Assembly (NCBI RefSeq): GCF_022682495.2
Contig: NC_071388.1
Coordinates: forward strand, 174,559,622-174,623,621
Length of the DNA stretch: 64,000 nucleotides
Source of the DNA: Desmodus rotundus
Lineage: Eukaryota; Chordata; Mammalia; Chiroptera; Phyllostomidae
Direction of reading: 5' to 3'
Shown here: positions 5,618 to 56,225 of the stretch, piece after piece
Position numbering within the stretch: position 1 is the first letter of the stretch
Layout: each line of letters opens with the position of its first letter
The notes under the pieces: generated by a model
What the model was told of the DNA's origin: nothing
Databases searched by the model: none
What the model saw: only the letters and a program-made list of their open reading frames with translations
Translations under genes and position numbers: made by a program

Positions 5618-5802
5618 GCCCTGGCTGGAGTGGCTCAGTTGGTTGGAGTGTAGTCCCATACACCAGAGGGTCATGGGTTTGATTCTCGGTTAGGGCACAT
5701 ACCTAGGTTGTGGGTTCGATCCCCAGTTGGGAGGCGACCAATCAAAGGTTCTCTCTCTTACCCTTTCTCTCTCTCTAAAATCAATAAATATATATTAAAA
5801 AA
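5618..5802 (+). mobile_element. Ves-type tRNA-derived SINE, sense
   Basis: The head is GCCCTGGCTGGAGTGGCTCAG, followed by an internal RNA polymerase III box-B-like GGTTCGATCCC (about 5715), a CT-rich stretch and a short A-rich tail. Near-identical TSDs flank it: AGAGTGACTG (5608-5617) and AGAATGACTG (5803-5812). Ves SINEs are a bat family, and this is the strongest lineage marker in the window. The body is diverged, so the copy is probably not young. Confidence 0.93.
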
Positions 5803-11397: not shown

Positions 11398-13426
11398 GGG
11401 ACTTCTGGCCAAGATGGAGGCATAGGTAGACATGCTTCGCCTCCTCACACAACCATAAGAAGTATCACAACTAACCGCAAAACAAAATACAACCAGAACT
11501 GCTAGAAAAATCAAACTGTATGGAAGTCTGACAACTAAGGATTTAAAGAAGAAATATTTATCCAGATGAATATTTGTAGGGTAGGAGGGGTGGAGTCGGG
11601 GAGTTGCGGTGGTGGTGATGAGCTGACGAGGTGGCAGCAGGGAGGCAGCAGCAGTGGTGGCTGGTGGAATGGGCAGTCCCACATTCATGTGTGGTGGATA
11701 AAAACCAAGAGGAACACTTGGAGAGTGGGCCATCCCAGCCTTAGGCCAGACTGCACAGCCCAGGGTTCCAGTGCTGGGAAATAAAGCCTCATAACTTCTG
11801 GCTATAAAAACCAGTGGAAGTTGGGGTGGTTGAAAAAAATTCCGATCTCTCAGGAGAGTTCGTTTAAAGGATCCACATGGCCCTAGAATGTACGCAAACC
11901 CACCTACTCTGGGATTCAGCGCCAGGACAGCAGCTAGAAGGGTGCCAGTCACATTAAGAAAGTGGGGTGACTGGAAATGGGGCGATAGTCCAGTAAGCAG
12001 CATTTTTCCCTCTCTCATCCCTCCCCGACATATAGCACCACAGAGAAGCGAAGCAAATATTTGCCCCACCTTGGCAAATACCTAAGACTCCGCTCCTTAC
12101 AATGTAACAGGTGTGCCAAGATGGGGTCAAAGTAGTTCAGAATACACAAAAACAAACACAGAGAGGTTGCCAAATTGAGGAGACACAGAAATATGGCCCA
12201 AATGAAAGAACAGATCAAAACTCCAGAAAAAGAACTTAGTGAAATGGAGGTAGCCAACCTATCAGATGCAGAGTTCAAAACACTGGTGGTAAGGATACTT
12301 AGAGATCTCACTGAGTATAGCAAATGCATAAGGGAAGAAATGAAGGCTACACTAAGTGAAATAAAGAAAAATCCACAGGGAACAAAAAGTTAAGGGAAGG
12401 AAGTCACGATTCAAATCAACAATTTGGAACATAAGGAAGAAATAAATAGTCAACCAGTACAGAATGTAGAAACAAGAGTTCAAAAAAAATATGGAGAGAA
12501 TAAGAAGACTCTGAGACATCTCCAAATGTGCCAATATCTGAATCATAGACATGCCAGAAGGAGAAGAGGAAGAGCAAGGAATTGAAAACTTATTTGAAAA
12601 AAGAATAAAAGAAAATCTCCCTAATTAGGTGAAGGAAATAGACACATAAGTCCAGGAAGCACAGAGCCCCAAACAAGCCCAAAGAAGACCATACTAAGAC
12701 ACATCAAAATTAAAATGCCAAAAGTTAAAGAGAGAATCTTAAAAGCAGCAAGAGAAAAGCAGAGAGTTACCTACAAAGGAGTTCCCATAAGACTGTCAGC
12801 TGATTTCTGAAAAGAAACTTTGCCAGCAAGAAGGGGCTGGAAAGAAGTATTCAAAGTTATGAAAGGCAAGGATCTACAACCAAGATTACTCTATCCAGCA
12901 AAGCTATCATTTAGAATGGAAGTCCAAAAAAGAGTTTCCCAGACAAGGTAAAGCCAAAGGGGTTCATCATCACCAAGCCCTTATTATATGAAATGTTAAA
13001 GGGAATTATTTAAGAAAAAGAAGAAGATCAAAACTATGAACAGTAAAATGACAACAAATTCACAACTATCAAAAACTGAAGGAAAAAACAAAAACAAAAA
13101 CAAAAACAAACTGAGTAGACAACTAGAACAGGAACAGAATCATAGAAATGGAGATCACATGGAGGGTTATCAGTGGGGAGGAAGAAGGGGGAGACTGGGG
13201 GAAAAGTACAGGGATTAAGAAGCATAATTGGTAGGTACAAAATAGACAGGGAGATGTTAAGAACAGTATAGGAAATGGAGAAGCCAAAGAACCTATATGC
13301 CCGACCCATGGACATGAACTAAGGGGGTGAATGCTGGAGAGAAGGGGTGTGCTGGGTGGAGGGGAGCAAGGGGAAGGAATTGGGACAACTATAATAGCAT
13401 AATCAATAAAGTATACTTTAGAAAAT
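11398..13426 (+). mobile_element. Full-length HAL1 (half-L1) retrotransposon
   Basis: The 2,029-bp element starts GGGACTTCTGGCCAAGATGGAGGC, typical of an L1/HAL1 5' end. It continues through a 5' UTR, a decayed ORF1 and a 3' UTR ending 'TAATAGCATAATCAATAAAGTATACTTT'. It has no reverse transcriptase ORF2, which is the defining HAL1 trait. TSD GTAGCAAAACA flanks it exactly on both sides (11387-11397 and 13427-13437), showing one complete insertion mobilised in trans by L1 machinery. Stops in ORF1 show the copy is dead. Confidence 0.88.
12193..12950 (+). pseudogene. Decayed HAL1 ORF1 (L1 ORF1p-like RNA-binding protein)
   Basis: The frame opens at the ATG of 12193 with MAQMKEQIKTPEKELSEMEV. It runs 66 codons, charged and coiled-coil-like, as expected for the ORF1p N-terminal half, before a TAA at 12391-12393. 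Downstream, ORF1 C-terminal-like segments can still be read, for example 'KERILKAAREKQRVTYKGV' and 'LLYPAKLSFRME' (about 12730-12920), with further stops. ORF1p is a nucleic-acid chaperone that coats its own RNA. This copy cannot make a complete protein. Confidence 0.75.
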
Positions 13427-13449
13427 GTAGCAAAACATGAATGATATAT

Positions 13450-27710: not shown

Positions 27711-29555
27711 AGGCCAATTTTTTTTTTTTTTAGCATAATGAGTCCATATTATACTATGGGAAGTGGTCAACAGTAATAAAACGAACTTTTGTCTTACAGA
27801 TGCTCTCGTTTGAGAAGTCTGGAAATCCTATGGCAGGAAGGCCCAACTCAAATGTTTATAAGGCTGGGAAGCCAATGTGAATAATGTAAGTTGTGAGCTA
27901 TGAGGAATGGAAAACTAAAATGCTTATCTTTTTCTAAAAGTGAGCAGTTATTTCTCAGTTGTGGCAATGTGGACATTCTAATTTTTTAAAGAGAAGAGTC
28001 TGGAAAGTGAAAAGATGACAACTAATTATAAGAAATTACTACACTGCATAGGCTAAAGTAAAACGTGCTTGTAGGCTTGTTTCAGCGTGGGGCCACCACT
28101 TTACAGCTTCCGAAATGGAGTCTTTAGCAACCCTCAGGAAGGCTCTGCTTCCACTAATCTCTGATGAAGCCAGAAACAAAGCTCAGTGCCTTGAAAACTG
28201 GGACCCAATGGAAGGGAGTAGAGGAGAAAAGCCTGTGAGAGTTGTGGGGGCAGGCTGAGCAGGAAGAGGGGGCAGAAGAATGAAAGAAGGGTGTTCGGTG
28301 AGGTGGGCGGTGTGGTCTGGTGGCGACAGGACGGGACAGGCACGGAAACGCTCTGTCATCATCGGGACCCCACGGGCGTTTGTGATCACCTGACAGGAGT
28401 TAGTCCCTGCAGGTCTTGTAGACACTACAGATCTAAGGGGTTATCTAATCTTGAAGTGATACAGGCCTTTGGAACCTGTGACTTCATTTTGAGGAATTAT
28501 AGGTATTAGCTTATTTTTAACTCTTTTTATTGGACATGGCTTCCCACTGGCTTTCTTGCCCATGCTGCTGGAGTGCTCTGATTCTTCGTGATCTTCTCAC
28601 CAGCTGAGTGTACGGTCCTGATTATGGTGACATTTATAAATTAATTAGCTAGGTACTCTTCTGTGGCCCCTGCATTATTACGATATTTGATAACAATGAA
28701 TTAACATTTTTTTTCATATGTTTACCTTATCTTTCCAAATTTTGAGCAAGTTTGAAGGCTGAAGATCTTAGCATATCCTTCTTGTATCCAGGGGAGAATT
28801 TAACTGTAGCCACCCCCACCCCCAATGTTTCCTCTCTACAAGGTAACAAAATACTCTTAAAGAACATAAAATCAGAGTTAGCCAACCACCTTGTCTGTGT
28901 GAAACAAGAAAAACCTTTTTGATTAATTTTTTTCTCCACTGGATTGAGAATTGATCTTTAAATCACCTAATTGATGGCTATCTTATCACAGCACACGCAT
29001 AGCTTCTGTGTTACGGAGCCCAAGAATCCCTCTATCCAAAGCAGAAGATGGTAACAGTTCATAAACTTGGAATTTACCCAAGCCATTTAATTAGCAAGTA
29101 TTTAATGAGTTTGTTTGTTTGGTTTGTCAACCAATCTTTAGAATTGTAGCTACTTTGCAGCTCAGTGTCTACCACGGTTGCACAGAGCCATTTGGATCAA
29201 AGATCATCAGAGAAAGGCACAGCCAAGGAAACCTGCATTTGCAGAACACATTAGAGAGAACGGATGTTATCTTTCCTTCCCTACACTATATTGCTGCTGA
29301 AAGAGACTTGCCTTGCAATAGGCCTAGAGAAGCTATAACAAATGTTAGTGGGTATTTGAAAGTAAATCTTAATACGACATGGAAAACAATGACTTAGATT
29401 TTTGACAGAAAGAGGCAATACATCAAGTATCACTTTGTTAAGGTTCAAGTGTAATGCATTAGCTGAAGATTATCAAATATTTTGGGGGATTATTTGTGTG
29501 TATAAGATTCTGGGCACCCTGGGGGACATGAAGGAAAATTAAAAAGGTGAACTTC
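27711..29555. other. Unannotated intergenic sequence
   Basis: An oligo(T) run lies at 27718-27731. Otherwise no recognised repeat. Open frames here (for example 29119-29397, 92 codons) lack recognisable domains. Confidence 0.4.
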
Positions 29556-32110: not shown

Positions 32111-33039
32111 TTCAAACATTCCCCCTCACATAATTTTGAAAAAGATACTTTCACTTTGCACATTTTAAAGTTGATATCAAAAATGTTTTAAGTTAAGTTT
32201 AAGCAGCTTTAAATCATGTAATTTTCTACATATTACAAATATTGATTATTTTAAAATAAAGCAAATAAATTTTTACATGAGTCCAATGAACCAAAGACTA
32301 TGGGATTTGTTACCTATCTACCATCATCCATTTGCAGTTGGAAATTTTACATTATTCTTTTTCTTTCTTGAACTCCTATATCCATTCTATTTCTCTTACA
32401 TAATTTCAGATTTATTGATTATTTTATTATGCTTGTGCATGACTATAGACAGTTGGTAACTAGTCTTTGCACATTCTCCGACACTGTTTTGTTGATGTAA
32501 AGCCAGTTCTTCAAAAGCAGGAAGGGATGCAAACCCATTAATTTACATTTTGCTAAATGACAGTCCTTACCCCATCGCATGCTCCCTATGAAATCTGGCA
32601 CTTTACTGAAGTTCTAATTAACTACTGATTTTTGCAGTGTGTATCACTTCTTGGCAAATGTGCGTGGTGTAGTACTTATCACACTCCTATATTACATTTC
32701 AAGTAGAATAATCAAGTGTATTTTTCATTAGAAAATTGATTTCCTTCAACCTTTTATCAGTTCTATTGGCTCCCTCTGAATTGTAAAAGTCAATAATTTT
32801 AGATGCTTCTCAAGCAATAGTCTCAGTGTGACTTGAGATCAACTTCTAGTACCCATTTCCAAGAGGTTTGGAGCCCCCTTGCTCCTCTTCCTCCTCTTCC
32901 TCTTTAGTCTCCACTTCTACTCCTTACCTCTGCCCTCTTCTCCTCCCTTTCTGCCACCAGAAGCCCAATTTTAATTCAGGCCCCATGTGCCCAATTTTAA
33001 TTAATGAATATTCATGCACAAATGATCTGGTTTTTCCTT
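32111..33039. other. Unannotated AT-rich sequence with a (CCT)-rich patch
   Basis: A short CCTCTT-rich simple stretch is at about 32880-32905. No gene recognised. Confidence 0.4.
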
Positions 33040-33255
33040 TGCTAGTGATTGGGGAAGTGGCTGTCATACCTTATCGTGAATCAGAATCACCTGGATAACT
33101 TGTTACAACACAGAAAATCCTGGTTTCTGACTCCGGTTTCTGATTTAGTGGGACTTGGGCGGGGCCTGAGAACACGTATTTCTAACAAGCTCTCGGGTGG
33201 CGCAGACGCAGCAGCTCGGCGGACCGCAGTTGGGAAGCCCTGGTGTAGGGTTTAC
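33040..33255 (+). mobile_element. MER5-like hAT element
   Basis: 'AATCAGAATCACCTGGATAACTTGTTACAACACAGAAAATCC', 'TTTCTGATTTAGTGGGACTTGGGCGGGGCCTGAGAAC' and 'TTTCTAACAAGCTCTCGGGTGG' follow the MER5 core. Its 3' part is unusually CpG-rich for the region ('GGTGGCGCAGACGCAGCAGCTCGGCGGACCGC', ~33197-33228). Confidence 0.6.
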
Positions 33256-34080
33256 TCTTGTGATTCATTCAGGTCCGTAAGCCATAGGAGAATTGGGAAA
33301 GTTTGTCCTTCCTGGTAGAAAAACATCCAGGCAGAGAAGACTTTATTTTCTTCTCTCGCCCCGTCCATCTCCTGGCTTCCTGTTTTGGATGCTGTCATGC
33401 CCATGTAAGGTCCAGGTTTTGGAGCTGCTGTAGCCATCCTGTGACAGTGCAAGAGAACCAAGAAGATTTCAGAGATGCCTTTCCACATCCTGACATTATG
33501 GAGCTCCTGAAAAACCTGCCTGGTATTGTTACGTAAAAAAAAAATTTTAAGTTTTTTTTTCATGCTGTTGCAGACAAAAGCATTCACCACAGATGCTTTG
33601 ACTGCCCCTCTCAAACCATCATGCCATCAACTGCGTGCTTAGAATAAAGACATAGACTGCAAACAATGTTATCACAGAATTGTGGTGCTAAAACCATAAT
33701 GCCTTTTCTTAAAATAACACCAAGTTTTTTTCTAATAAACATGACGCATTTGGGTATGGTGTCTCAGGGTAAAGGGTTAGAGGAAGCTATGTAGACTGAG
33801 TGTCTCTGTGCATAGGTTGGATCTCAACAAACTGAAATACTGTATCTAGAATGCTGTTTCATGCATTGAAGTTCAAGTATGGGAGCCATCCTAGTCAAAT
33901 TTACTGATGACACGTAGCTAGGGAGACAAGAGAATGTGGGATGTTCAGGACTTTCTGGTGGGTGGGGAAGATGACTTATTCTTGGTAGCTTTGGAGAAAG
34001 GAATTGGTATGAATGAAGAGAATTTATAAAAAGGCACATTTTGTCTCTCTATAAGGGGACAAATTTTCCAACACCTAGAG
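33256..34080. other. Unannotated intergenic sequence
   Basis: An unresolved repeat may lie at 33330-33640 (LTR-like wording such as 'GCTGCTGTAGCCATCCTGTGAC'), but I cannot name it. The last bases, ACCTAGAG at 34073-34080, are the left TSD of the following hAT. Confidence 0.3.
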
Positions 34081-35274: not shown

Positions 35275-35745
35275 TACTCCTATAACCTCTTTTTATGTGC
35301 TTGACACTGTTTTAAGTGCTTTATGACACTAACTTATTTGATCTAATATGTTTAAAGATTTTATTTGTTTTATTTTTAGACAGAGGGGAAGGGAGGGAGA
35401 GAGGGAGAGAAACATCAATGTGTGGTTGCCTCTTGCCCCCCCTACTGGGGATCTGGCCTGCAACCCAAGCATGTGCCCTGACTGGGAATCAAACCTGTGA
35501 CCCTGTGGTTCTCAGGCCAGCACTCAATCCACTGAGCCACACAAGCCTGGTCAATTTATTTGATCTTTACAATAAACCTTTGAGGTAGAGATATTATTGC
35601 CCCATCTTATGGATGAGACAAATGAGATACAGTAAGGTTAACTTGCCCAAGGTCCCAGCTAAGAAATGGTGGAGCAGGATTTGAACAAGTTGTTCTGGCT
35701 CCTCCATCTATTTTTCCTACCACCATGCTATGCTGCTTCAAACTT
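35275..35745 (-). mobile_element. MIR SINE, antisense, split by a Ves SINE
   Basis: The left piece 'TGCTTGACACTGTTTTAAGTGCTTTATGACACTAACTTATTTGATCT' continues after the Ves as 'TTACAATAAACCTTTGAGGTAGAGATATTATTGCCCCATCTTATGGATGAGACAAATGAG...AACTTGCCCAAGGTC'. This is the reverse of the MIR consensus. The order shows the Ves landed in a pre-existing MIR. Confidence 0.88.
35351..35550 (-). mobile_element. Ves-type SINE, antisense, nested in MIR
   Basis: The antisense tail starts 'TTTAAAGATTTTATTTGTTTTATTTTTAGACAGAGGGGAAGGGAGGG' and the head ends 'CAATCCACTGAGCCACACAAGCCTGG'. A perfect 11-bp TSD TTATTTGATCT occurs at 35334-35344 and 35556-35566. About a dozen extra bases sit between the TSD and the recognisable ends. 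Confidence 0.93.
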
Positions 35746-40977: not shown

Positions 40978-41396
40978 TTAGTTTTGAACATTTTTAAAAA
41001 CTATATTTTATTGATTGTGCTATTACAGTTCTCCTATATTTTCCCTCTTTGCCCGCTCCACCCAGCCCCTCCACCCCCACTCCCTCAGGCTCTTCCCACA
41101 CCATTGTTCAGTTGGTGTCCATGGATCACGATGTGTGTTCTTTGGCTACTCTATTTCCTATGCTGTATTGTACATCCCCATGGCTATTCTGTAACTACTG
41201 ATTTGTACCTCTTAATCCCTCACCTTTATCACCCATCTGCCTCAGATCACCCACTCAGATGCCTCTCCTGTCTGGCAACCACCAAAATGTTCTCTGTATC
41301 TATGATTCTGTTTCTGTTCTGCTTGTTTGTTCATTTTGTTTTTTAGATTCAATTGTTGATAGATATGTATTTGTTGCCATTTTATTGTTCATTTTC

Positions 41397-41438
41397 TCCT
41401 TCTTCTTCTTCTTCTTCTTCTTCTTCTTCTTCTTCTTC
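41397..41438. repeat. (TTC)n microsatellite inside HAL1
   Basis: About 14 tandem TTC units lie between the antisense 3' UTR and ORF1 end of the HAL1. The sense copy has 'AAGAAAAAGAAGAAG' at the matching place (13013-13026), so the tract is an expansion of a native (GAA) run. Confidence 0.92.
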
Positions 41439-41449
41439 AAGAAGACCTT

Positions 41450-41960
41450 TCATGTTTCATATAATGCTGGTTTAGTGATGATGTACTCCTTTAGCTTTTT
41501 CTTGTCTGGGAAGCTTTTTATCTGTTCTTCAATTCTGAATGATGGCTTTGCTGGGTAGAGTAATCTTGGTTGTAGGGCCTTGCTTTTCATTACTTTGAAT
41601 ATTTCTTGCCAGTCCCTTCTACCTTGTAGAGTTCCTTTTGAGACATTAGCTGATGGTCTTATCGGGGGTCCCTTGTAAGTAACTAACTTCTTTTCTCTTG
41701 TTGCTTTTAAGATTTTCTCTTTGTCTTTTACCTTTGGCACTTTAATTATGATGTGTCTTCAGGTAGGCCTCCTGGGTTCATTTTGTTTGGGACTCTCTGC
41801 ACTTCCTGGACTTGTATGTCTATGTCTGTGACCAAGTTAAGGAAGTTGTCTGTCATTATTTTTTCAAATAGGTTTCCAATTTTTTGCTCTTTCTCTTCTC
41901 TTTCTGGCACCCCCATGATGTGAATGTTGGTATGTTTGAAGTTGTCCCAGAGGCTCCTTA
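41450..41960 (-). pseudogene. HAL1 ORF1 remnant (ORF1p C-terminal domain)
   Basis: A 96-codon open frame at 41450-41740 (minus) begins MPKVKDKEKILKATREKKLV and contains 'YKGPPIRPSANVSKGTLQG', 'LQPRLLYPAKPSFRIEEQIK' and 'FPDKKKLKEY'. This is the conserved C-terminal nucleic-acid-binding part of L1/HAL1 ORF1p. Upstream on the minus strand to about 41960 the reading resembles more ORF1 but is broken. This half is less decayed than in the sense copy at 12193. It is not a host gene. Confidence 0.8.
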
Positions 41961-42046
41961 CCTATCCTCATTTCTTTGGATTATTTTTTCTTTTTGATGT
42001 TCTGATTGGTTGCTTTTATTTCTTTTTCTATATTTGTTTAATTTTT

Positions 42047-42515
42047 CTCTTTTTTTATTAATTGTTGTTCAGTTACAATTGTCCTCATTTTTCCCCCATT
42101 AGTCTCCCCTGCCCTCCCATTCCCACATCTTCCACATTCAATCCTACCCAACCTCCTCCCACCATTGTCTTTGTCCATGGGTCCTTTATACATATTCCTT
42201 GACTCTTCCCCTTCTTCCCCCATTGTCCCCCTCCCCACTCCCCTCTGGCTACTGTCAGTTTTTTCTTTATTTCCATGTCTCTGTTTCTGTTTTGCTCACA
42301 TGTTTGTTTTGTTGATTTGGTTCAACTTGTAGGTTAGATCATGTGGTATTTGTCTTTCACCACATGGCTTATTTCACTTAGCATAATACTCTCCAGTTCC
42401 ATCCATGCTCTCACAAAAGGTAGGAGTTTCTTCTTTCTTTCTGCTGCATAGTATTCCATCGTGTAAAATGTACCACAGTTTTTTGATCCATTCATTTATT
42501 GGTGGACATTTATTC
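42047..42515 (-). mobile_element. 5'-truncated L1 nested in the antisense HAL1
   Basis: The plus strand shows an antisense tail 'TTTTTTTATTAATTGTTGTTCAGTTACAATTGTCC', a C-rich 3' UTR, then the L1 3' body 'GCATAGTATTCCATCGTGTAAAATGTACCACAGTTTTTTGATCCATTCA'. HAL1 sequence resumes after about 42515 ('CATTTGATTCTTGGCTTCATCTACTCTACTGTTGATCCC'). The TSD is not clear. Confidence 0.75.
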
Positions 42516-44002
42516 ATTTGATTCTTGGCTTCATCTACTCTACTGTTGATCCCTATAAATTATTCTTTATTTTAATTAATGTATCCTTCATTTTTGACTG
42601 GATCTTTTTTATGGTTTCCATGCCCTTTTTTTTTTTATTCTGTTTAAGTTCTCTGAGTGTCCTTATAACCAGTGTTTTGAATTCTTATCTAGTAACTTGC
42701 TTATCTCTATTTGTTTACTTCTTTTTCCAGAGTTTTGTTCTGCTCTTTCATTCAGGCCATGTTTCTTTGTCTCCTCATTTTGGCTGCCTCCCTATGTTTC
42801 TATGTATTAGGTAGAGCTACTATGTCTTCCAGGTTTGGTAGAGTGGCCTAATTTAGCATGTGTCCTACAGGGTCCAGTGGCACAGCTGCCTCTGTTACCC
42901 AAGCTGGGTACTCCAGGTATGCTCACTGTGTGGGCTGTGTACACCCTTCTGCTGTAGTTGAGCTTTCATTGCTGTTGGTACATCCAAGGTCAGCCACTAC
43001 TTGTCTTTTGTCTGGGGTCACACAGGATAAGCTACAAAGTGATCTGCAGATGGCTGCTACTTGTGCTGGGCTTGGAGGTGACTGGGAGAGGCCAAATTGT
43101 GAACCAAGACTGGCTGCTGCTAGTGCTGGGCCTGGGGCAATTTAGTGAGAGGTATGAGACTCACTGATGTCACATGCTGCTTGTCTAATTTAGAAAAATC
43201 TGAAGCATGGACAAACACAAACCATTCATATAGAAAAGCCACTGGAAATAGCTTGGGTGAGCCTGAAATTTAGGTGGGGTGGAGCCTTAGGGAATTGCCA
43301 GGGTGGGGCAAACAGTGTGAGCCAGTTTGATGGAGTCTCAGATATCGTGCCCACCTGCTGGCTGTGTTGGAGGACAGCTCAGAAAAGGAACAGTGGCCTC
43401 TTCCAGCACTTCTGTCTGGGAGTAAGCTGCCCCCTGGCTCTCACCCTGATGCGAGACAATTCAGTCCTCCTCATATGTTTCTGATGCTTTTCAATCTGCT
43501 GCCACCATGCTAGAGCTCAGAAGGAGTGAGTCTAAGTAAGTCTGTGTGTAGGCCCCTTAAGAAGAACTGCCAGGGCATCCAGCAGTTCCTGTTTTTTACA
43601 GTCTCAATCCCCACTGGTTTTTATAGCCAGAAGTTATGGCCACTTCTCTTCCTTGCACTGGAACCCTGGGTGGGGGAGCCTGGTGTGGGGCTGGGCCCTT
43701 CACTGCTTAGATATCTCTCCCAGTTTTTATCCACCACACGTGAGTGTGGGACTAGCCCATACTGCATCTCCACTTATTTTACCAGTCATGATGTAGTTTC
43801 CTCTTTAATTCCATAGTTGTAGAACTTTAGCTCAATTTCTGATGGTTTCGAATGCTAGTTGTTCTATAGTTTAGTTATAATTTTGATGTAGTTGTGCAAG
43901 AACATTGCCATGTTTACTTATGTTGCCATTTTGACCAGGAGTCCTTAGTTTTGAACATGTTGCATTAAGATTATCAGGAGCAAATATTTGGAAGGTACAT
44001 TA

Positions 44003-54166: not shown

Positions 54167-55033
54167 TGCCCAAGTCCTGGAGAACAGATTTATTTTTTTA
54201 ATCACTGATATCTTTGGATAATTCAGAGGCAATTTCTTACATTAAAGCCTGAGACTTTACAATTGCGAGAATTCTGTCTGCACAACCTATCCAAAAAAGG
54301 TACATCTGATGTTTGAAAAAACTTCAAAGTCATTGAAAGACAAGATCCTGCATGTTCTCATGCTTGTTCTGTACTGTAAACTCTAGTATCCGGACTAGTA
54401 TGCTGACTTGATAATAAATCCATTTCTAGTTTGGGTCGGGTTTAAAACAGCAGTTTATAAGCAGGGGTCCATAGAAACCTGGAAGCACGCAAGACTTTGC
54501 AGGGCACAAAGTCATGGGCACTTTGAAGGGAATCAATTTCCAGACCCTCAGCTTCTACATGCAGTCTTTCCTGAAACTAATCTCCCAGAGAGAATGGCTG
54601 TGGTGGGCCAGTTATCTTCCCCAACTGCCTTGCACAATCACTCTATTCTATACGAGAAAATTGTGCCTCCCACCCATCTCCAGTCTCACCACCGTGAATA
54701 GCAGTGATGTTGAGACTGCCCGCCTTGGCTCCCGGGGGCGGGGGGGGGGGGGGAGGCTCCTGGAAGACGGGGCAGAGGGACGCTGATGAGAGTTCCTGGT
54801 GCGTGCGGCACTTTATTTCCATATCGTTTCAGCAACAGACTGGTGTCTCTCTGTCTGAGTCTATCTCACAAGGAATTTGAACTTATAGGTAAGGAAGAAT
54901 GAGATGTGATTTATCACGCTTATTAAAATAAACATGGAAGTCAGACATTTTCTGTTGGAAACTGAGTCTGATTTGGTTGATTGGCTTGACAGAGAAGACA
55001 GGCTTTGCCAATTAGTTCGATGGCAGACATGTT
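54167..55033 (+). repeat. Inverted repeat, left arm
   Basis: The outer end is at TGCCCAAGTCCTGG and the inner end at GATGGCAGACATGTT. Open frames of 97 codons (54408-54701) and 90 codons (54514-54786) occur here and are mirrored in the right arm, but have no recognised domain. They are probably chance frames that the duplication copied. Confidence 0.93.
54734..54753 (+). repeat. G-rich tract G5-C-G14 in left arm
   Basis: A 20-base run of G with one C, able in principle to form G-quadruplexes. The mirrored tract in the right arm is C17 (55646-55662), so the two differ by one base and three in length. It is the only difference within the inner 541 bp of the arms. Confidence 0.9.
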
Positions 55034-55365
55034 TGATAAATTTATTAAATTAAATTTTCAGCTCCAAAGTTTTGACAAATATATGTTTAAAGCATGTATC
55101 AATGTAAAATATATTGGTGAATACATCCTCTTCAATGATTTAAATTTACAGTAAATGCTTTAGAAGTCAATTAAAAAATGTAAGAGGGGCTACATAGTTT
55201 CTCCAAAGCTCATGAATTTAAAATATTAGCTGATGGGAATAAGAGAATGTGTGGCAGCCCAGAGAATGAAAATAGCCCCCCAAACCTCTCACTAGGAAAA
55301 TGATTTAGCACTAATGAAATATTTTAAACATTAAGCAAACAGGTTTCCCGCAGAATGATTTATAG
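55034..55365. other. Unique spacer between inverted-repeat arms
   Basis: 332 bp of AT-rich sequence, not mirrored on either side. No gene or named repeat recognised. It would be the loop of any hairpin. Confidence 0.85.
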
Positions 55366-56225
55366 AACATGTCTGCCATCGAACTAATTGGCAAAGCCTG
55401 TCTTCTCTGTCAAGCCAATCAACCAAATCAGACTCAGTTTCCAACAGAAAATGTCTGACTTCCATGTTTATTTTAATAAGCGTGATAAATCACATCTCAT
55501 TCTTCCTTACCTATAAGTTCAAATTCCTTGTGAGATAGACTCAGACAGAGAGACACCAGTCTGTTGCTGAAACGATATGGAAATAAAGTGCCGCACGCAC
55601 CAGGAACTCTCATCAGCGTCCCTCTGCCCCGTCTTCCAGGAGCCTCCCCCCCCCCCCCCCCCGGGAGCCAAGGCGGGCAGTCTCAACATCACTGCTATTC
55701 ACGGTGGTGAGACTGGAGATGGGTGGGAGGCACAATTTTCTCGTATAGAATAGAGTGATTGTGCAAGGCAGTTGGGGAAGATAACTGGCCCACCACAGCC
55801 ATTCTCTCTGGGAGATTAGTTTCAGGAAAGACTGCATGTAGAAGCTGAGGGTCTGGAAATTGATTCCCTTCAAAGTGCCCATGACTTTGTGCCCTGCAAA
55901 GTCTTGTGTGCTTCCAGGTTTCTATGGACCCCTGCTTATAAACTGCTGTTTTAAACCCGACCCAAACTAGAAATGGATTTATTATCAAGTCAGCATACTA
56001 GTCCGGATACTAGAGTTTACAGTACAGAACATGCATGAGAACATGCAGGATCTTGTCTTTCAATGACTTTGAAGTTTTTTCTCACATCAGATGTACCTTT
56101 TTTGGATAGGTTGTGCAGACAGAATTTTCGCAATTGTAAAGTCTCAGGCTTTAATGTAAGAAATTGCCTCTGAATTATCCAAAGATATCAGTGATTAAAA
56201 AAATTTGTTCTCCAGAACTTGGACA
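55366..56225 (-). repeat. Inverted repeat, right arm
   Basis: It begins AACATGTCTGCCATCGAAC and ends GAACTTGGACA. Differences from the left arm lie at 55907, 56032, 56082-56083, 56127, 56216 and 56223, plus a 4-bp indel near 56200. Mirrored open frames at 55695-55988 and 55613-55882 (minus) have no known homologue. Confidence 0.93.
55646..55662 (-). repeat. C17 homopolymer in right arm
   Basis: Mirror of the left-arm G tract, G17 on the minus strand. Prone to slippage and sequencing error. Confidence 0.92.

What the first reader, a model, noticed from the sequence alone, without database searches (positions are those of the whole stretch)
54167..56225. 867/860-bp near-identical inverted repeat around a 332-bp spacer, not a known transposon
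Direct comparison shows the two arms are reverse complements at about 99 percent identity, while neighbouring repeats are ancient and heavily diverged. This implies a recent inverted duplication or ongoing arm-to-arm gene conversion. Long inverted repeats are unstable and can form cruciforms. If transcribed they give long double-stranded RNA, a source of endo-siRNA, ADAR editing or innate sensing. Best candidate for something undescribed in this window.
Basis: partly seen in the sequence, partly recalled or inferred. Interest (0 to 1): 0.75.

Follow-up and report, generated by a model that had tools for sequence, protein, structure and literature searches.

The report
Young inverted duplication with single-copy spacer
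A stretch of about 860 letters of apparently non-coding DNA, probably from a mammal, has a near-identical backward copy 332 letters away; this looks like an ordinary, fairly recent DNA-copying accident, although an assembly error is not excluded.

Summary
The inverted repeat is in the sequence as described. Strict arms are 54170-55033 (864 nt) and 55366-56222 (857 nt): 851 identical sites, 6 substituted sites (5 events), 7 gap positions, 332-bp spacer. BLASTN finds no further copy of arm or spacer in the window. No element-level target-site duplication and no Rfam or Pfam match. Flanks and spacer halves are unrelated, apart from one marginal 300-bp comparison. All 5 substitution events lie in the outer 37% of the arms. 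The 8 nt just inside the strict arms still pair at 6 of 8 (chance 0.0065), the 8 nt outside at 5 of 8 (0.037), and a direct ACAT borders the right arm (0.12). Best reading: a recent replication-based (fold-back or template-switch) inverted duplication, a common human variant class (PMC12350158). Misassembly is the main rival; an unnamed foldback transposon is less likely. The decisive genome-wide copy count could not be made: the genome search did not complete in 11 tries. Species, transcription and small RNAs are untested; hairpin RNA function is only potential. Interest is low.

The parts
54170..55033 (+). left arm of the inverted repeat (864 nt); slightly favoured as the original copy
   Evidence: no shared sequence between its two borders when treated as the insert
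55034..55041 (+). inner edge: 8 nt, 6 of 8 paired with 55358-55365 (2 mismatches, then ATAAAT); proposed fold-back seed
   Evidence: chance of at least 6 of 8 is 0.0065, of a run of 6 is 0.001; in AT-rich spacer-like sequence 0.015 and 0.003
55034..55365 (.). 332-bp spacer between the strict arms; its halves are unrelated to each other
   Evidence: (spacer halves, p 0.41)
55358..55365 (-). inner edge partner of the proposed seed
55366..56222 (-). right arm (857 nt), reverse complement of the left arm; slightly favoured as the copy
   Evidence: direct ACAT at 55367 and 56223 (chance 0.12)
54734..54753 (+). G-rich run in the left arm, interrupted by one C; site of the 3-nt length difference between arms
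55646..55662 (+). matching run of 17 C in the right arm

Best explanation
A recent, single-event inverted duplication of non-coding host DNA. Shown: two arms 99.3% alike in ungapped columns, a unique spacer, no target-site duplication at the outer ends, and short inverted similarity at the inner edge. Inferred: during replication or break repair the growing 3' end at the far side of the spacer folded back, or switched strand, onto the short inverted match at the inner end of the left arm. It copied about 860 nt outward and then returned to the original template near its point of departure, leaving ACAT on both sides of the new copy. Later mutation, perhaps with some arm-to-arm conversion near the centre, gave the few differences. 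No function need be assumed; hairpin RNA or fork stalling are possible by-products.
For: Sharp edges: flank-to-flank, flank-to-spacer and spacer-half comparisons are at chance in 7 of 8 tests; the eighth, outer flanks of 300 bp, had p 0.045 but p 0.30 at 600 bp and 0.99 at 1500 bp. Inner edge 6 of 8 inverted matches, P 0.0065. No other copy of arm or spacer in 64 kb. No target-site duplication across the whole element (best 3 nt, P 0.31) or around the left arm (0 nt). Precedent: most human inverted duplications show 1-15 bp microhomology and are ascribed to replication (PMC12350158, passages). Human fold-back events leave a single-copy spacer, with short inverted homology at its edge in many (PMC3907307, passages).
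Against: No outgroup, reads or host genome were available, so the event itself is inferred. The seed could simply be the continuing arm with a 2-nt difference. The outer edge also frays (5 of 8 matches, P 0.037), so the seed is not unique to the inner side. ACAT alone is not significant (P 0.12). The P values are not corrected for several tests. The length, about 860 nt, is above the human median of 284 bp.
Confidence: 0.6

Rival explanations
1. Assembly artefact: a fragment of the other haplotype, or a wrongly closed gap, was placed inverted beside its own allele.
For: Divergence of about 0.6-0.7% is of the order of allelic difference (recalled, no call), the differences include two length changes in simple runs, and there is no target-site duplication. 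Inferred; no reads were seen.
Against: The right arm runs on into a right flank unrelated to the left flank, which a simple hairpin read artefact would not give. The inner-edge match (P 0.0065) is not expected of a misjoin.
Confidence: 0.22
2. Older inverted duplication kept alike by arm-to-arm gene conversion, strongest near the centre.
For: 5 of 5 substitution events lie in the outer 37% of the arm (about 0.007 one-sided, positions). Conversion is proposed for long-kept inverted repeats in nematodes (PMC1803023, passages).
Against: No convincing trace of more diverged homology outside the arms (p 0.045 at 300 bp only). The pattern fails if the inner 2-nt mismatch counts as arm. 5 events is a small number.
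Confidence: 0.1
3. Unnamed non-autonomous foldback transposon with about 860-bp terminal inverted repeats.
For: The overall form, two long inverted arms around a spacer.
Against: No target-site duplication (best 3 nt, P 0.31), no second copy in the window, and no Pfam match in 4 of the 19 stop-to-stop frames of at least 50 aa in the element (frames, scan). Genome-wide copies untested.
Confidence: 0.06

Closest known systems
Human polymorphic inverted duplications (PMC12350158, passages seen)
   Same: short inverted extra copy, little or no long breakpoint homology, replication-based origin proposed
   Different: here about 860 nt against a median of 284 bp; seen in one assembly, polymorphism unknown
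Fold-back inverted duplications with a disomic spacer (PMC3907307, passages incl. abstract seen)
   Same: single-copy spacer and short inverted homology at its edge
   Different: those are large and go with terminal deletions, translocations or rings; this one is interstitial, and its spacer (332 bp) is below their sequenced range of 766-70,466 bp
Local template switching, four-point model (PMC7954356, passages seen)
   Same: copying of a nearby stretch in reverse makes a new inverted repeat
   Different: their gold-standard fragments have median 12 and maximum 128 nt
Long inverted repeats of the human genome (Lirex, PMC5414712, passages seen)
   Same: arm identity above 85% and arm-to-spacer ratio about 2.6, so inside their 'recombinogenic' class, of which over 100 are stated for human
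   Different: ratio far below 16, above which that paper calls the recombinogenic ability strong

Membership tests
replication-based inverted duplication | near-identical inverted copy close to the original | tested here: met
   851 of 857 ungapped sites, 332-bp spacer
replication-based inverted duplication | microhomology of 1-15 bp at the junctions | tested here: inconclusive
   inner edge 6 of 8, P 0.0065; ACAT P 0.12; outer edge 5 of 8, P 0.037
replication-based inverted duplication | ancestral locus with one arm in relatives | not testable with these tools
   no relative's genome was reachable; the genome search (own genome) unanswered
foldback or other DNA transposon | target-site duplication at the outer ends | tested here: not met
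   best 3 nt, P 0.31
foldback or other DNA transposon | dispersed copies with the same ends | tested here: inconclusive
   none in the 64-kb window; genome search not answered
hairpin-RNA / endo-siRNA locus | foldable long hairpin | tested here: met
   853 of 867 arm bases pair with the other arm, MFE -1761.9 kcal/mol on the + strand
hairpin-RNA / endo-siRNA locus | transcription and 21-24 nt reads | not testable with these tools
   no RNA data held
gene-converted palindrome | arms more alike within than between species | not testable with these tools
   no relatives available

The most novel reading that the evidence does not exclude
A long inverted repeat whose centre is kept identical by ongoing arm-to-arm conversion and whose transcript is a natural source of long double-stranded RNA in a bat or other mammal.
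Probability: 0.04. Interest if true: 0.55.

Novelty: new member of a known kind. Interest (0 to 1): 0.2.

Why it matters
If real, it is a well-preserved example of an interstitial fold-back duplication, and relatives or other individuals could date it and show which arm is new. It could also be a site of fork stalling or of double-stranded RNA. As it stands it changes no general view.

Tried and rejected
Searches with nothing found: Rfam on the whole window (0 matches); phages and plasmids by blastn of the 2059-bp element (no match); an exact 21-mer in viral contigs and an exact 24-mer in genome contigs (0 each; these collections are not expected to hold mammalian DNA, so this says little); Pfam on 10 of the 17 window ORFs of at least 110 aa, none of them in the element (0 families), and on 4 of the 19 frames of at least 50 aa in the element (0 families); tRNAs (0). 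Considered and set aside: arms that encode a protein (no Pfam match in the 4 frames scanned); simple tandem origin (TRF lists nothing in the element); older homology beyond the arms; small inverted triplication (PMC13334657, passages), which needs two direct copies and one inverted, whereas only two copies are found here.

Corrected: started the left arm one base too far in; one search also used other inner edges (right one at the seed); one search placed three of the five substitution events 10 nt too high; one search compared the outer 8 nt one base off and found 2 of 8. One search repeats the edge tests and lists the substitutions with right coordinates and replaces these; the outer edge is 5 of 8, which weakens the special status of the inner seed. 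The age (about 1.3 million years, 0.4-3.1) rests on a rate of 2.2e-9 per site per year that I recalled, and assumes no conversion.

Full report
Observation. The arms exist as described. Local alignment pairs 54170-55041 with the reverse complement of 55358-56222. Leaving out the last 8 nt on each inner side, where only 6 of 8 match, the strict arms are 54170-55033 (864 nt) and 55366-56222 (857 nt), with 851 identical and 6 different sites and 7 gap positions. The differences (left/right) are C/T at 54176, G/A at 54269, TT/GA at 54313-54314, T/A at 54364, G/A at 54489, 4 gap positions at 54187 and 54189-54191 by an A/T run, and 3 at 54737-54739 in a G-rich run. BLASTN within the window finds no other copy of arm or spacer. 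The other three inverted pairs of at least 60 nt listed for the window are 72-79% alike.

Nature. The element holds no Rfam family, and no Pfam family in the 4 of 19 frames tried. The left arm is richer in G+C (0.44) and CpG (observed/expected 0.38) than the window (0.38 and 0.19); the 300-bp stretch from 54601 is joint third in CpG count among the 300-bp windows examined at steps of 100. That may mark an old regulatory element but is not evidence of one.

Edges. Beyond the arms the flanks are at chance, except a marginal 300-bp comparison (p 0.045) that vanishes at 600 and 1500 bp. The 8 nt inside the strict arms pair at 6 of 8 (P 0.0065; run of 6, P 0.001; 0.015 and 0.003 if the null is drawn from the AT-rich spacer), the 8 nt outside at 5 of 8 (P 0.037). 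For an insertion of the right arm alone, ACAT lies at both borders (P 0.12); for the left arm alone nothing is shared; for the whole element 3 nt are shared (P 0.31). None of these P values is corrected for the several tests made. Together they lean to fold-back or template-switch copying with the right arm as the new copy, without proving it.

Age and conversion. 5 substitution events in about 860 sites give roughly 0.6%. With a recalled mammalian rate this is about 1.3 million years, 0.4-3.1. All 5 lie in the outer 37%, about 0.007 one-sided and 0.014 two-sided (positions; method). Conversion near the centre, clustered errors of copying or chance could each give this; counting the inner 2-nt mismatch as arm removes it.

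Consequences. RNAfold pairs 853 (+ strand) and 854 (- strand) of 867 arm bases across the spacer. Arm-to-spacer ratio is 2.6. By Lirex's rule such repeats count as recombinogenic, and over 100 are stated for human, but strong ability is put at ratios above 16 (PMC5414712 passages). Fork stalling at inverted Alus was not frequent in eukaryotic cells with a 52-bp spacer; against that, a yeast site with 6-kb arms and a 280-bp spacer, stable in wild type, breaks when DNA polymerase alpha is reduced (PMC7999016 passages). So strong instability here is unlikely in normal cells and possible under replication stress (inference). No transcript or small-RNA data were available.

Known kind. Inverted duplications are the commonest class of the 733 non-mobile-element inversions in 1,019 humans (277 events), and most bear 1-15 bp microhomology (PMC12350158 passages). 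Fold-back events with single-copy spacers, and 2-8 bp inverted microhomology in 13 of 21 sequenced junctions, are described in human disease (PMC3907307 passages). I filed this as a new member of that kind, with the caveat that the defining comparison with an ancestral locus could not be made. Three paper searches that included a bat term (rows shown 15 of 564, 10 of 48 and 8 of 54) show no title on such a structure in bats; the term also matches other words that begin with bat, so this is weak.

Limits.

Noticed in passing
11669-13436 and 40981-43760: A diverged inverted pair in three aligned pieces (153, 155 and 1071 columns, 71-78% alike), about 28 kb apart; probably two old copies of one interspersed repeat (family not identified).
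   Followed up: partly
54601-54900: CpG-enriched, G+C-rich core of the arm (10 CpG in 300 bp; window mean about 2), with a splice-donor-like AG|GTAAGG near 54888; possible old regulatory element or exon, untested.
   Followed up: no
33001-33400 and 28101-28600: Two other CpG-rich spots, the first the richest of the window (12 CpG in 300 bp).
   Followed up: no
5620-5734 and 35437-35550: Short inverted pair, 74% alike.
   Followed up: no
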